Of a DNA stretch of 60,476 nucleotides, positions 47,520-55,300 are shown one piece after another (positions within the stretch are counted from its first letter, which is position 1; each line of letters starts with the position of its first letter). The position numbers and the translations under genes were made by a program. Under the pieces are notes generated by a model. It was not told the DNA's origin. It saw only the letters and a list, made by a program, of their open reading frames with translations, and searched no databases. This DNA comes from Spirogloea muscicola (Eukaryota > Streptophyta > Zygnematophyceae > Spirogloeales > Spirogloeaceae): the NCBI GenBank assembly GCA_009602725.1, contig WELB01000272.1, positions 1 through 60,476 on the forward strand, written 5' to 3'.

Positions 47520-50500
47520 GAGCTGCGCTCCGCGACCACCGTTTCCGCCGCCGCCGCTGTCGCCTCCGCGGCCGCCGCCGACGCCGCCGGCGACGCGCTG
47601 CCGCTGGCCAAGGCCCAAGCTGCGCTGGCCGAGGCCGTGCAGACGCTCCAATCCGGCAATGCGGTGCGTCGCGTGCGCCTCGCGGACTGTCCGAGCGAGC
47701 TGAGCATGCGGGATGAGCTGACGCCATTGCCAGTGCTTACGGGTCTTGCTCGGAGACGGCCATGGGGCTGATGCTCTGCTGCAACGTGGAGCTCTCAGAC
47801 GGCAGTCGACCTTCGCTACAAGCTCTTCCCACTCATGGCGCGTTGGCGGAGCAGCCCAGCCGCGGCTGGTGGCAGCCTGACGCTCGAAGGCGGTCTGGAG
47901 CCTCGAGAGACGAGCACCGGCGACCACGACGGGTTTTGGCAGGAGGCAGTCCGCCGCTGGCGCGACCTCTGCGAGGCAGTCGCCGAGAGCGAGACCCTCA
48001 CGGCGCTGCACCTCCAGGTCCGGCACTCTGGCCCCGGTGACCGACCAACTACGCAGCATGCTCAGCTGCTGGCCCAAGCTTGACGTGCAACGCTTGATAC
48101 TGTCGAGTGGACAGTGTCTGGTGTTATTGAGACCGTAATCGTATTGTAACATGTCTATGCGAGATGTGGGGGCATCCAAGTTGTCCTCCACACCCCGGAA
48201 AGGACTTCAGATCTGTGGTGACCGCGCTGCCCGTTGCATCATCTTGGGTTCTCTGACCTGTGTGTGTCCTGGAGCTCAGGGTAATGACTTGGGCACGTAC
48301 TTGGGTGCCAAGGTGGGCTTCCTCGAGCCGCTGGCCGACGCACTGTATCGCAACTGCTCCCTGCAGGTTCGTGGGCGCACCTGGAGACTTTTTTTATGCG
48401 AAGCTGCATTGTAGCAAACGTCCTCATGCACTTCAGCAGATGCGCATGAACCCTTGAGTACCAAGGATGAAAGCCGAGACTGACGAGGGGCTCAGTCCTG
48501 CACTCAGCCCTCTCAAAGCCTTGGCCATTGGAATGGTATTAGCATTTGGCTTAATTTCTTGAGTGATTTGTATGGGCATATCTTCCTCTCTGGGCATGTT
48601 GACTAGAGCAAAGACACCGAGCATTTTATGGTACTTTTGCTGGCCCTCGAAGTGCTCTCTTGTCTTCCCTCTTCCGATCTGCAGGTCCTAAATATGTCCT
48701 GCAATGGCTTGTCGGACGCCGACGTTGTTATGCTGATGGAATGTGTGGTTGGCAGCATGTCATTGAAGGTAAATCCACCTGCTCAGCATGGAGTAGCCAC
48801 AGGGCTCCTAGGTCGAGGCTGCCTGAGGTAGCAAGCTGCTGCTCTTGAGCATTTGCAGTACTCTCGTGTGCTTTTCTCTGGCCTTGCAGGTCTTGCGTTG
48901 GCAACTTGGGGTGTTGAGCTTTACCCAGTAGGAGCTTGCATGATCAGATGATTGTCACACAACAGATTCTAGAGTCCGCCTGGATAAAACTAGCACAGGT
49001 AGCAGCAGTGTGCAAGTATCAAAGTAAGTTGTTGCAATGGAAATCGTTTGGACCTCTGGATTGCTGTGCTTAAGAGTGCAATTTCGTTGAGCAGGCACTG
49101 TATCTGTATGGCAACGCGCTAGGGGACAGTGCAGCCAGTTCCATTTCAAAGGCCATCAGAGCTGGCCTGCCGTAAGCTTCCTCACTGGGCCAGGGAGCGT
49201 CATCAATGTCTGCTTGATTATTGAGAATCTCAGTGTAAGGTTTGTGGAAGATACTGAGCATATACACATGCCAGAGAGCCGAAGAGCCATGTGTATGCCC
49301 CCTGCCTGCTTACATTGTTGCTTCTTTGTGAATTTCACAGGCTCCAGGTCCTGGAGCTCAGTTTGAATGAAATTGGGGATGCTGGAGCTCTAGCCCTGGC
49401 CTCTGTGGTCGGGCAGAGGCAGGGGCTGCTGCAGCCGCTGTGGTTGCACCTGAGCAGCAACCGCATTGGCCTGCGTGGCATCGAGGAGCTGTCGTCGCTG
49501 GAAGCCATGCCACCCCGCCTTCAGTCGTTTGTCGCTGGTGACTCCTGGCGACTGGGCCACTTTGGCTCTTCGCAAGGAGGAGATGCTGCCACTGGCGGCG
49601 TTTTTCTCTTGGGCAACCCGGGCTGGACAGAACTAGCTCGACTTTCCGCTTCTAGTTACGAGCTGATAGATGGTGCCAAGCCTGTTGCCGTCCCTGCAGC
49701 TGCGCCAACGAATGATACTCTGTTAGAGGCAGCGTCGCCGTTGGGCCTAGTGGCAGCGACCTCACAGCTGGGGGCAGGGAACGAGATTGGAGATGCTGAT
49801 AGCGGATTAGCCACGGCATCCATGGAAACAGTTGCACTGCCATTGCCCTCAGAAGGAAAGGCTTGGCAATCTTCAATGGATTTATCTGGAGGGGAGCAGG
49901 AAGGTTGTCCCAGACAATGTTCCAGTGAGTCGTCTGCACTTGACAACAACTACAATGAAGGAAGTTCCTCAATGCTGACAACATACCATCACGAGGATAG
50001 AGACTCGCGTGAACAAGATGCTAATAGTCATCATCTTGGGGGACAAGTCCGTCTCACATCTTGCAACCCAGCACGTCTGGAGGAGTTGATTCCCAAGGAC
50101 TGGAAATATGCACTGCAGCATCGAGCTGGCTACACAATAGCACTGGCCAGGATCAGTCATCAACTTGGAGAAATATGGGCCCGTGGCGGGCAGGTGACCC
50201 CCAGGCAAGAACTGCGGTCCATTGAGCTGCCTGCCGAGGCCATAGCTCTGCGAATTTGCAGCATGCTGTACAGTACTCTCTCATCTTGACGACCAAGATT
50301 ATTGAGCGTCCTGGATCAAGCCCAGGGTTGGACGAAATTAACCATAGATCAAAATGTATCTGGCAGGAAAGAGAAGATTTTCAAGGCTCTGGAGTTATGC
50401 CCCTTGTCACAAGTGCGCGCCGTAATAATTGGGTATCCCAGACGCTTCTGAGCATCCCTTGAAAAGGAGGCCCCCTCAGTATGTCATACAAGCAGCAAAA

Positions 50501-52119
50501 GGAAACTGGATATAGTCGATGCATATTGTTCGGATGTCGTCCAGAGCTACCTTCGTTGGCTTATGTAGCCACACAGATCGTTCACTAATAGTACCTCAAT
50601 TCCCTCATGACAGGACAAAGACCCAGAGTAAGGATGACTTCGGGGATGGCCTTGCCTTCTCCAATCCTGAGGTAGTGTGTGCTTCACCTTACATTGCTGA
50701 GTCTTATTTATGCGTGCCACTCCCTGTGAGTCATGCCCTCCGGCCTTTGCCAGTCAGTCTTATCATGTCAAAGCGAGTGCTTTGACGTGGTCACTCCACA
50801 GCCAGTTGCATAAACAAGGCCAGCAGAATGGCAACAACAGAAGGGTTGACGAAGTTGTCAGCCAGTACTTTGGCCAGGACATCTCTGGTTCTTAAATATG
50901 TGGCGTACTCTGATGTACTTCCTTGCGGGTCTGGCTTGGCACAATCATTGCATCTGCAGTACAGGTTGAACCCCTTATATGACCAAGACTTTGACTACAT
51001 ACTTGCGGCTCTGAGACTGCATACACTGGAGCTTGGAAGGGAGTGGAGGGTTCCTGCCTCTGGAGATCTTTCTCCATGGGCCTCACAGGCAAGTTCTTCA
51101 AGTGCAGCCAACATCTGACACCTGGCCTGGTCTGTGCGTGCCAGCACATCCCTGTGGCTAATAGGCGGCTTGACATATTGTGGTTGCTTGACATTGTGGT
51201 TGAATGCAGACAGGCGGCCGTTGACCATGGTTTCAATGGGGGTCACTTGCACAAGAAAGACTCACAACACAAATTGTGCCGTGCATTCAGGGAGTTCTCC
51301 TACTCAACATGGCAATGACATATTCGCTGGAAATTGAGCCAGAGGGCAGCACCAACAGGGAATTATGGCTTCCCTTCTGCCGGGCTATCCTGGAGACCGT
51401 TGCACAACACCACAACTGCATCCCCTTTGCTTTTTGGGGCTCACACGAGAGCAGGATAGTGCGAGACACCTTCAAGGTCTCATGCCACTGCCTATTTCCT
51501 AAACCCAACATGCAGTCCTGTATCAGCATCCTCTGCAATCTGCACAAGCAACCGTGTGAATTTGGGAATGGACTCCGTGGCCATCCTTGGCCTACGCATT
51601 ATAATCATATTTGTGTCAATGTGTTCCCCAGCAATTCATGAGTTGTGCCTGCATAACTCTTGCATGACAATAAGTACAGATTCTATTAAGTGGGTGGTCT
51701 CGTTGGGGTTGACGTGGTCTTACTGAAGTATTTACACCTCGGTCATCAATTTTGGCCTGCTGGCCCTGACTATATCTGGCTGTCATCTTACTTGTTTGGC
51801 AGGAATTTGACCATGAAGTCAAGGACCTCCCTGGCAAGAAGCACAAATGCATTGTAGAGCCAGTGCCCGCCAATCCGAGGAACAATTTTGCAGGTGATCA
51901 CAGGGACACTGCAGCCTTGTATGCCTCTTATGGTCTAGGGCTAGCATTCTTGACATTCTTTTTCAAGGCATTGAGGACTATGTAAAGATTAAGCGGGCAT
52001 ATATTGATGAGATTGCCTGCATTTTTCTTGCAGACGAAGAGAACAGACCTTTTGCAGTAATCAACGAGCACCTGATACAGAACAACCTCGATCCTATTGA
52101 TTGGACCCTTCCTTGCTGA
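47520..52119 (+). CDS. LRR protein apparently fused to a UNG-fold domain
   Basis: Confident in-phase exons: about 47806-48017, 48280-48366, 48685-48768, 49095-49171, 49341-50193, 50326-50432, 50614-50671, 50960-51088, 51291-51476, 51803-51893, 52034-52119. The first part has ribonuclease-inhibitor-type leucine-rich repeats (VLNMSCNGLSDADVVMLM, ALYLYGNALGDSAA, VLELSLNEIGDAGALALASV, LHLSSNRIGLRGIEEL), then about 150 Ser/Ala-rich residues. The second part follows the uracil-DNA glycosylase fold: IPKDWKYAL, EKIFKALELCPLSQVRAVII, GLAFSNPE, LSPWASQGVLLLNMAMT, IPFAFWGSHE, HKCIVEPVPANP, and INEHLIQNNLDPIDW. The catalytic Asp and His positions of the family are not conserved. Without the splice at 50193 the LRR frame stops at 50289, so a short isoform is possible. 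The intron after 51088 starts GC. The 5' end is uncertain. Confidence 0.72.
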
Positions 52120-52447: not shown

Positions 52448-54655
52448 TTAGTGACCTGGAGTCAGAACAAACTGCTCCACAGCCACAGCTAGTCCATCGT
52501 TGTCATTAGTCAAAGTGACATGATGTGCAACTTTTTTAAGTGCTTCTCCTGCATTGCCCATGGCCACGGCAAAGCCAGCCATTGTCAGCATTTCAATGTC
52601 GTTTTCCCCTGTGCACAAAAGAAGATTCTAATTAGTGGCTGGAGGAGGCCGGAAGTGGTTGTTGTCTCAGCCCAATTCTCTTAAGACTATTTCTGCTTGC
52701 GTATGAAGACTATTTCTGCTTGCGTATGAATCGAGATTTACTTGTTACCAGCCGTTCAAACCATCCTGTGTGACTTGTGTTTGCATCTCCAGGAACCCAC
52801 TGTGAAGAACCTGTGTAAGGCAGGTACACCTACCATCTCCTATAGCCATGACATTGCCTTGGTCTATGCCAAGGTCAGCAAGAACTTGGGCCAGGCCGCG
52901 GCCTTTAGAAGCACCAGCTGGTAGAACCTCAAGCATTCCATGCAGCGCTGTTACAATTGTAGCTTTGTCTCCCAGCACAAGCTCTACTTGTGGCCTCAAT
53001 CGAGCCAGAGTGTCGTCGCTGGACATGAACAGCAGCTGCAGCATAACCACCAAACAAAGTAAGAACAAGTTGGTATGTGTCCTATCAGCAACAGTGCACG
53101 GACTCGGTATAAAGGCGAGACTTGGCAATTCACTATTTGACTGCAACCATCAATTGTAACAGGCAAGGCCTCAGAAGGTGGAAGATCTGTTGACATCCTG
53201 AATTGTCAGAGCACCTTATGCAATCAGTCATCATTGCCTTGCCCGCAATTTGACCTACTTTGTTTACTGATAACAACATTAACCACAATTACAACTACTG
53301 CTTGTTGCTTGTCGAATATGTCTTTCAAGCAAGCAAACTTGACTGAGACACTCAATGAACTTGAAGTAGCAAAGTCATCACAGACTAAGACTTCGAAATG
53401 CTCCAGGCTTGTACAAAGTACCACAAGGTCATCGCAGGGCGTCACATGCTGTCAATCCCAAATGCTGAGAGCTCTGACCAGCCCAGTATAATGGTAATTT
53501 GTTGATATCTGAAGCCTTTATTGCAAGACCACTGACCTTGTGTATTATCAAGCTACCAACGACGTTGAGTAAAGGGCCCACAGCCTCGGGAATAGGTTCA
53601 CCATACCCAATCAAGCGATCAGTGTGAAAGTTTGTTGCTTCACATAGACTGCAGTCAAAAGAGAGCTGCAATCAGGACTTGGCAATGTATCCTGCAAGGA
53701 CAGCAAGCAACCGCCTACTGTAGCTGAAAGATAGACCTGTTGTTCTAGCAATGCCAAGAGCCATATAAGACTGTGACAAGACTAGAAAATTAGATAATCC
53801 CGCATCCGCAGGACGGTATGCAGAAATTGTCAAAACTCACATCCGCTCACCGCAACAAGCAATCAGGGTAAGATTTTCCTGTTGAGCAAGCTTAATCACA
53901 GCCTTTGCAAGAGCTTCATCCATCGTTCGCTCATATGCAACTGAGCCATCTGCATTGTATATGAGCAGTCCCTGGTAAGGGGACAGTGTAAATGGAGGGG
54001 ACAATACATCAGACATGCTGATGTGACAAGTCTAAGGGCAGTTTGCATCGATGAGTATGATTTAGCAGCATCACTGATCGTCCACATGTCACACAATGGA
54101 GCCAGTCACATCATTATGTAGTTGCCATATCGTCTGAGAGGATGCGGCAACTTCTGGATAACCCAGGCACTGAAGTTGAAGCATCCTGATAAATGTCGCT
54201 TATACAAATAGATGTCACTATCACCTGGAGGTAAACGCCAGGAGTCGAGATTCTTAATCTTGGCAAAACTGAAGTTACCCAAGGCCCCCTGGTTTTGCCA
54301 GTTGCAATGACAACCTGCCACGTAGATGAGTGGGTCACAATATGGCAGGTAACTTCACAAGAGCAGCTGTGCCAGACCAGCTTTTGCTAGTATGGCAGCA
54401 AGCACAAGGCAATTGAACAGAGAGCTACTGTCAGGCAACAGTAAGTGGCTACTTGTGAAGAATAGAGTACATCCACTTCACCTGCACCCCTTGATCCATA
54501 GCAAGTCGCAGAGCTCGCACGGTGCGTTCACTGAGCTCCTGCTTTGAATCCAAAAGAGTCCCGTCGACGTCAGTCGCTATCAGCCTGATCTGCTCCGCGG
54601 GGCATGCTCGATTATCCTGGATCGATCGCTGGACTGGTGCAAGTGGCCTGCTCAT
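52448..54655 (-). CDS. Cof-type HAD-superfamily phosphatase
   Basis: Six exons, 289 residues: 54655-54482, 54314-54225, 53971-53841, 53648-53537, 53035-52834, 52608-52448. All four HAD motifs are present: DVDGTLLDS (nucleophile and acid/base Asp), ATGK (motif II Thr), LPAGASKGRGLAQVL (motif III Lys) and GDGENDIEM (metal Asp). The Cof/YbjI cap is recognisable by GLLIYNADGS and ETNFH-like EATNFHTDRLIGYGEP. Such enzymes hydrolyse small phosphomonoesters; the plant members include plastid sugar- or nucleotide-phosphate phosphatases. No clear transit peptide precedes the domain (20 residues, MSRPLAPVQRSIQDN). It is transcribed away from the S28 peptidase gene; the shared upstream region carries the inverted duplication. 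The specific substrate is not predictable. Confidence 0.9.
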
Positions 54656-54690
54656 TGATCCCTTGCCAGAAAAAATGGACGAACTGCCTC

Positions 54691-55300
54691 TTCGTAGCCG
54701 GACCTGATCATCCCCAGCACCAGCGATTGATTATGAGCGACGCTGTTTCTCGTGGTCGACTCTTGGTCCCGCGGCCTTCCCAGCAGGTGTGCCGCTGGCT
54801 GCCTGGTTGCGCTCGGCGGCCGCTCCCTATTGCATGGCGACAGCTTTGATCCCGCTCGTCGGCCGGCGACCGCGGGCCATCGGAGGCGCGATATTGCGAG
54901 TTCCATGCACTCTCCACCTGCCGAGAATGGCAGTAATAGTAGCGCTGCTCGAATGCTCAGGCTCAGAGACCTGCGAGAACGACCGTGACTTAGTCGCTAC
55001 CACGAGAAACAGCGTCGCTCATAATCAATCGCTGGTGCTGGGGATGATCAGGTCCGGCTACGAAGTCACGGTCGTTCTCGCAGGTCTCTGAGCCTGAGCA
55101 TTCGAGCAGCGCTACTATTACTGCCATTCTCGGCAGGTGGAGAGTGCACGGAACTCGCAATATCGCGCCTCCGATGGCCCGCGGTCGCCGGCCGACGAGC
55201 GGGATCAAAGCTGTCGCCATGCAATAGGGAGCGGCCGCCGAGCGCAACCAGGCAGCCAGCGGCACACCTGCTGGGAAGGCCGCGGGAGCAAGAGTCGCGA
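54691..55300. repeat. large near-perfect inverted duplication in a divergent promoter region
   Basis: Block B (about 54758-54991) reappears inverted as B' (about 55064-55297) with only a few mismatches, such as CCATGCAC against CCGTGCAC. Between them lies A' (about 54999-55063), which is the inverse of A (54691-54757), the sequence just left of B. The order is therefore A, B, A' inverted, B' inverted. It sits between the HAD gene start (minus, 54655) and the S28 gene start (plus, 55512). Confidence 0.85.

What the first reader, a model, noticed from the sequence alone, without database searches (positions are those of the whole stretch)
49341..52119. LRR gene spliced into a UNG-fold domain
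The LRR exon would stop at 50289, but a strong donor CAG/GTGACC at 50194 joins in phase 0 to 50326. The joined protein then reads through the UNG order: IPKDW, a 35-residue helical stretch, IFKALELCPLSQVRAVIIG, GLAFS, WASQGVLLLN, FWG, PIDW. The UNG N-terminal tryptophan helix (IPKDWKYAL) is already encoded in the last LRR exon, so the two cannot easily be separate genes. I know of no described LRR-UNG fusion.
Basis: partly seen in the sequence, partly recalled or inferred. Interest (0 to 1): 0.82.

Follow-up and report, generated by a model that had tools for sequence, protein, structure and literature searches.

The report
Leucine-rich repeats fused to dead UNG
One algal-type gene joins a leucine-rich-repeat protein to a copy of the DNA-repair enzyme uracil-DNA glycosylase that has lost its catalytic residues, and three diverged copies of the gene in the same genome all keep the combination intact, so it is probably a working adaptor protein and not a repair enzyme.

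Summary
The fusion is real at the DNA level. One uninterrupted exon (49341-50204) carries the last LRRs, a ~190-residue linker and the first UNG helix; six further exons complete a family-1 UNG domain (NCBIfam UNG 4e-25). Two diverged copies in the same genome (C8, C6; 83-85% identical, introns included) keep ten intron boundaries and one open frame of 575-581 codons. dN/dS is 0.27-0.30 (UNG) and 0.45-0.48 (linker), against 0.63-0.93 for introns read as codons. A GC-AG intron, 50205-50366, fits all three and scores ~10 bits better. A catalytic-type UNG is encoded separately. Best reading: a pseudo-glycosylase used as a binding domain in an LRR adaptor. Transcription, function and occurrence in other eukaryotes were not tested.

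The parts
47835..48017 (+). probable first coding exon (ATG...LTALHLQ); true 5' end unresolved
   Evidence: ATG and 61-codon frame kept in 3 of 3 copies, dN/dS 0.25-0.45; the stretch upstream is not frame-conserved
48280..48366 (+). LRR exon (GNDLGTYLG...), 29 residues
   Evidence: splice sites and frame conserved in 3 of 3 copies
48685..48768 (+). LRR exon (VLNMSCNGLSDADV...), 28 residues
   Evidence: Pfam LRR_6 E=8.7e-14 over the assembled protein
49095..49171 (+). LRR exon (ALYLYGNALGDSAA...)
49341..50204 (+). bridging exon: last LRRs, linker (about 49519-50076), first UNG helix (LEELIPKDW...GGQVTP)
   Evidence: open in 3 of 3 copies; length differences from the C6 copy all multiples of three
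50205..50366 (+).
   Evidence: GCAAGA and TGGCAG identical in 3 of 3 copies; best UNG score of the 4 junctions scored
50367..50432 (+). UNG exon (KEKIFKALELCPLSQVRAVIIG)
50614..50671 (+). UNG exon with the altered water-activating loop (TKTQSKDDFGDGLAFSNPE)
50960..51088 (+). UNG exon (YRLNPLYD...GDLSPWASQ); GC donor follows
51291..51476 (+). UNG exon (GVLLLNMAMT...FAFWGSHESRIVRDTFK)
   Evidence: the Q|GVLLLN intron position and phase match the canonical UNG gene of this genome (compared by eye)
51803..51893 (+). UNG exon with the altered His/Leu loop (EPVPANPRNNFA)
52034..52119 (+). last UNG exon (EENRPFAVINEHLIQNNLDPIDWTLPC, stop TGA)
   Evidence: stop codon at the same place in 3 of 3 copies

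Best explanation
A single nuclear gene encodes an RNase-inhibitor-like LRR array, a flexible linker and a C-terminal family-1 UNG domain that is a pseudo-enzyme. Shown: homology, the single reading frame, conserved splice sites, purifying selection, and replacement of most active-site residues. Inferred: the UNG part arose by duplication of the organism's own UNG gene, lost the water-activating Asp loop and the catalytic His, and was kept as a folded binding surface. The protein would work as an adaptor: the LRRs bind one partner, and the UNG fold binds another protein, or at most reads DNA without cutting the base.
For: UNG homology over profile positions 4-223 of 225 (88.8-95.6 bits in 3 of 3 copies); a profile of the three copies finds 43 UNG sequences among the 58 PDB sequences listed at E<=1, best 2.7e-12, and the other 15 have E>=0.036. 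Pfam LRR_6 at 50.9 bits, cut-off 23.4. Ten introns have the same boundaries in 3 of 3 copies. dN/dS is 0.27-0.30 in the UNG part, 0.45-0.48 in the linker and 0.33-0.45 in the LRRs, against 0.63-0.93 for introns read as codons. All 20 matches to the UNG part and all 15 to the LRR-linker part lie at the same three loci, so these searches showed no LRR-only relative. A separate catalytic-type UNG (QDPYH, HPSGFS) lies on C183, with a second copy on C169. Aligned without gaps to that protein at both loops, GQDPYH becomes GTKTQS (GTTTQI in the C6 copy) and HPSGFS becomes VPANPR (VPANLR in the C8 copy), while Phe (GLAFS) and Asn (LLLN) stay. Asp64 and His187 are the catalytic residues of E. coli UNG (passages of PMC1936997). 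The intron at Q|GVLLLN has the same place and phase as in the canonical gene.
Against: No transcript evidence. Pfam UDG (PF03167) does not detect the domain, and no UNG score reaches the curated cut-off (88.8-95.6 of 162 bits), as may be expected of a very diverged member. No structure was predicted. The linker's constraint is only modestly stronger than the intron baseline, and its third-position excess reaches p<0.05 in 1 of 3 pairs. The adaptor role itself has no direct evidence; a new chemistry cannot be excluded from sequence.
Confidence: 0.72

Rival explanations
1. Two overlapping transcription units: an LRR protein ending inside or just after the bridging exon, and a UNG-like protein started from an internal promoter, for example at the Met (MDLSGGEQ/MELSGGEQ/MEVSGGEQ) in the linker.
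For: Two in-frame ATGs of the bridging exon are kept in 3 of 3 copies (MPPRLQSF at the end of the LRRs and the linker one above), and unspliced read-through past 50204 stops soon in all three.
Against: No stop separates the LRRs from the UNG helix in any of the three copies. The unspliced C-termini differ between copies (the C8 copy changes frame), so that end does not look selected. The linker keeps the frame.
Confidence: 0.12
2. The UNG-like domain is an active glycosylase or another DNA enzyme with a changed active site, aimed by the LRRs.
For: Uracil-pocket Phe and Asn and the Gly-Ser pair (WGS) are kept in 3 of 3 copies. The poxvirus UNG keeps activity with altered loops (PMC1936997 passages).
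Against: That viral enzyme still has the Asp, Tyr and His; here all three are replaced in 3 of 3 copies, and a canonical UNG is already present.
Confidence: 0.08
3. A decaying gene: the UNG exons are a dead duplicate that happens to lie downstream of an LRR gene.
For: The catalytic motifs are lost; identity to the canonical UNG of this genome is only 28% over 209 residues (C6 copy).
Against: No stop or frameshift in 575-581 codons in 3 of 3 copies, UNG dN/dS about 0.3, intact splice sites.
Confidence: 0.04

Closest known systems
Family-1 uracil-DNA glycosylase (UNG; NCBIfam NF003592, TIGR00628)
   Same: Same family by sequence profile over nearly the whole length; keeps LLLN, the GLAFS Phe and WGS in 3 of 3 copies, and PIDW in 2 of 3 (PTDW in the C8 copy)
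   Different: Catalytic Asp, Tyr and His replaced; Pro-rich loop not recognisable by eye; fused to LRRs; score far under the curated cut-off
Poxvirus UNG (vaccinia D4), a UNG with a catalysis-independent role
   Same: A diverged UNG whose binding of A20, needed for viral replication, does not depend on glycosylase activity (passages of PMC1936997)
   Different: D4 keeps five of six active-site residues and activity, and is a single-domain protein; its entry codes 2OWQ and 2OWR were not seen among the codes printed, which name few organisms
RNase-inhibitor-like LRR proteins (Pfam LRR_6; the label 'RI-like' is recalled)
   Same: 28-29-residue repeats, partly one repeat per exon
   Different: C-terminal UNG-like domain; no NB or TIR match; transmembrane parts were not looked for
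NLR integrated (decoy) domains
   Same: An LRR protein carrying a non-catalytic copy of a cellular protein (idea from PMC4246468, of which I saw the listing and the start of the abstract)
   Different: No nucleotide-binding domain among the Pfam matches (first exon not included), so no evidence that it is an NLR

Membership tests
Family-1 UNG | sequence-profile similarity over the fold | tested here: met
   E=4.4e-25, profile 4-223 of 225; the curated cut-off of 162 bits is not reached
Family-1 UNG | water-activating loop GQDPYH with Asp and Tyr | tested here: not met
   GTKTQS or GTTTQI in 3 of 3 copies; motif definition from passages of PMC1936997
Family-1 UNG | His/Leu intercalation loop HPSPLS | tested here: not met
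   VPANPR in 2 of 3 copies, VPANLR in the C8 copy, where the Leu is present
Family-1 UNG | uracil-specificity motif LLLN and stacking Phe | tested here: met
   GVLLLN and GLAFS in 3 of 3 copies
Family-1 UNG | uracil excision | not testable with these tools
   needs protein
RI-like LRR | tandem LRR_6-type repeats over the curated cut-off | tested here: met
   50.9 bits against 23.4
NLR with integrated domain | nucleotide-binding (NB-ARC/NACHT) domain | tested here: inconclusive
   no such Pfam match in 575 residues, but the first exon (61 residues) was not included and the 5' end is unresolved

The most novel reading that the evidence does not exclude
The LRR/pseudo-UNG protein is a sensor: a non-cutting UNG copy serves as bait for UNG-binding proteins (for example UNG inhibitors of viruses) or as a reader of uracil in foreign DNA, coupled to an LRR signalling scaffold outside the NLR class.
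Probability: 0.08. Interest if true: 0.8.

Novelty: new variant of a known kind. Interest (0 to 1): 0.47.

Why it matters
UNG is among the most conserved repair enzymes (recalled). A conserved cellular pseudo-UNG attached to a protein-binding scaffold would show that the fold has a non-repair use outside poxviruses, and would give a natural catalytically altered UNG to study. The case also shows how three diverged copies in one assembly can test a gene model without RNA data.

Tried and rejected
Donor 50194 with acceptor 50376 and donor 50217 with acceptor 50366 are also possible in all three copies but score 77.4 and 80.5 bits against 88.8. They cannot be fully excluded, and the other 13 of the 16 shared junctions were not scored.

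Pfam UDG found nothing in the spliced domain or in the genome; the genome search reads exon by exon. Relatives in IMG/VR (73 stretches matched a pattern, none a relative by tblastn) and in GTDB contigs (166 stretches, none a relative) were not found; each of these searches used two short peptide patterns, and the collections hold viral contigs and prokaryote genomes. Paper searches for an LRR-UNG fusion or an inactive UNG paralogue gave nothing that looked relevant in the rows listed (1 of 1, 15 of 43, 12 of 897 and 2 of 2 papers). A search for a triploid green-alga assembly (8 papers) named no candidate I could match; the species is unknown to me. I looked at the outline and abstract of PMC7145615 (NB-LRR proteins in Chlorophyta) and did not use it further.

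Structure prediction was not run: the spliced protein is not read letter for letter from the DNA, which the tool requires.

Full report
Setting. The window is the stretch 1-60476 of contig C272 in an unnamed assembly of 153 Mb and 471 contigs.

Observation. The seven exons from 49341 to 52119 have splice consensus and consistent phases. The LRR part matches Pfam LRR_6 over its cut-off. Four upstream exons (47835-48017, 48280-48366, 48685-48768, 49095-49171) extend the LRR protein; the 5' end stays unresolved.

Three copies. A protein search of the same genome found the same set of UNG exons on C8 and C6. The three copies align at 83-85% over 5 kb, introns included. The 7.5 kb downstream of the gene is for the most part also found on C8 and C6, at 84-93% identity, so these look like homologous chromosome segments of a polyploid or hybrid genome and not local duplicates; this is inference. 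They give a comparative test. Ten introns keep their boundaries in 3 of 3 copies, two of them of the GC-AG type (there the four LRR introns were entered up to four bases off, and the boundaries given here are read from the letters printed). One frame of 575 (window), 575 (C8) and 581 (C6) codons, stop and first exon excluded, runs through LRR, linker and UNG. Relative to the C6 copy, the exons of the window copy lack 3, 3, 9 and 3 bases and those of the C8 copy lack 3, 3 and 12. The direct window-C8 comparison shows gaps of 11, 8 and 3, where overlapping gaps of opposite sign net to 3. Intron indels are multiples of three in 9 of 29, 6 of 23 and 8 of 23. Pairwise dN/dS is 0.27-0.30 (UNG), 0.45-0.48 (linker) and 0.33-0.45 (LRR), against 0.63-0.93 for introns read as codons in three frames. 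By codon position, the linker's differences rise towards the third position but reach p<0.05 in only 1 of 3 pairs, and the short UNG-helix stretch of the same exon shows no significant third-position excess in any of 3 pairs, so the evidence from codon positions is moderate.

Junction. A scan of donors GT/GC in 50120-50299 and acceptors AG in 50300-50399 gave 70 workable junctions in the window and 16 workable in all three copies. Among them, 50205 (AG|GCAAGA) to 50366 (GGCAG|G) has the best consensus by my judgement. It scores 88.8 bits against 78.3 (reader), 77.4 (50194/50376) and 80.5 (50217/50366), and it extends the match into the N-terminal helix (profile 4-223 of 225). A point that does not sit well: the first part of the proposed intron (50205-50250) is itself well conserved between the window and the C8 copy, so longer exon forms or intron retention remain possible.

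Active site. PMC1936997 (passages) lists the UNG active-site residues as Asp64, Tyr66, Phe77, Asn123, His187 and Leu191 in E. coli numbering. Against the canonical UNG encoded on C183, the two loops align without gaps: GQDPYH to GTKTQS (window and C8) or GTTTQI (C6); HPSGFS to VPANPR (window and C6) or VPANLR (C8) (MAFFT and BLAST of the C6 copy alone: 28% identity over 209 residues, E=1.3e-15). Asp, Tyr and His are thus replaced in 3 of 3 copies; Phe and Asn are kept in 3 of 3. The genome keeps a catalytic-type UNG on C183 and a second copy on C169, which lacks one base in one exon, so the fusion need not do repair.

Origin. The intron at Q|GVLLLN is at the same place and phase in the canonical gene (CAG|GTACCT...AG|GGCGTG) and in the fusion (CAG|GCAAGT...CAG|GGAGTT). 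A second intron lies within a few bases of the GQ|DPYH intron of the canonical gene but in another phase. The canonical gene appears to have a further intron after ACLT that the fusion lacks, and the fusion has the intron at 50205 that the canonical gene lacks (by eye). On balance this favours duplication of a nuclear UNG over a bacterial or viral origin; I made no tree.

Mechanism. I propose an adaptor: LRR surface plus pseudo-UNG surface. The poxvirus UNG is a precedent for a UNG fold kept for a catalysis-independent protein contact. The family, the frame and the selection are supported here; the adaptor role is inference.

Novelty. I found no described LRR-UNG fusion in the listings, which search open-access papers only. 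I rate it a new variant of a known kind: a new domain architecture with a pseudo-enzyme of a known family.

Noticed in passing
L019 (G000:C6:405228-405533), L017 (C102:483240-483593), L018 (C31:1-339): A second kind of diverged UNG-like sequence in the same genome: an N-terminal piece (L019) with GQSPYP in place of GQDPYH, and C-terminal pieces (L017, L018) with H(H/P)VAR in place of HPSP. Best NCBIfam UNG E 1.4e-8 (L019 piece) and 2.6e-11 (L017 piece). That the pieces belong to one gene family is inference; origin not settled.
   Followed up: partly
L015 (G000:C169:284000-289500), near local 3600: The C169 copy of the canonical UNG gene lacks one base relative to the C183 copy at the start of the exon reading LIDTKRHH: a frameshift, an assembly error or another splice site.
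   Followed up: no
window 54690-55297: A self-complementary (inverted-repeat) stretch of about 0.5 kb, with related copies on C8, C6 and C31.
   Followed up: no
window 50205-50366 and 51089-51290: Two GC-AG introns proposed in one gene, both with AG|GCAAG donors kept in 3 of 3 copies.
   Followed up: yes
C272, C8 and C6 segments: Three collinear segments at 84-93% identity suggest a triploid-like or hybrid genome.
   Followed up: partly
window 52448-54730, minus strand: Open frames that look like a HAD-type phosphatase gene (IATDVDGTLLDSKQELSERT, GENDIEMLTMAGFAVAMGNA); the label is recalled, not searched.
   Followed up: no
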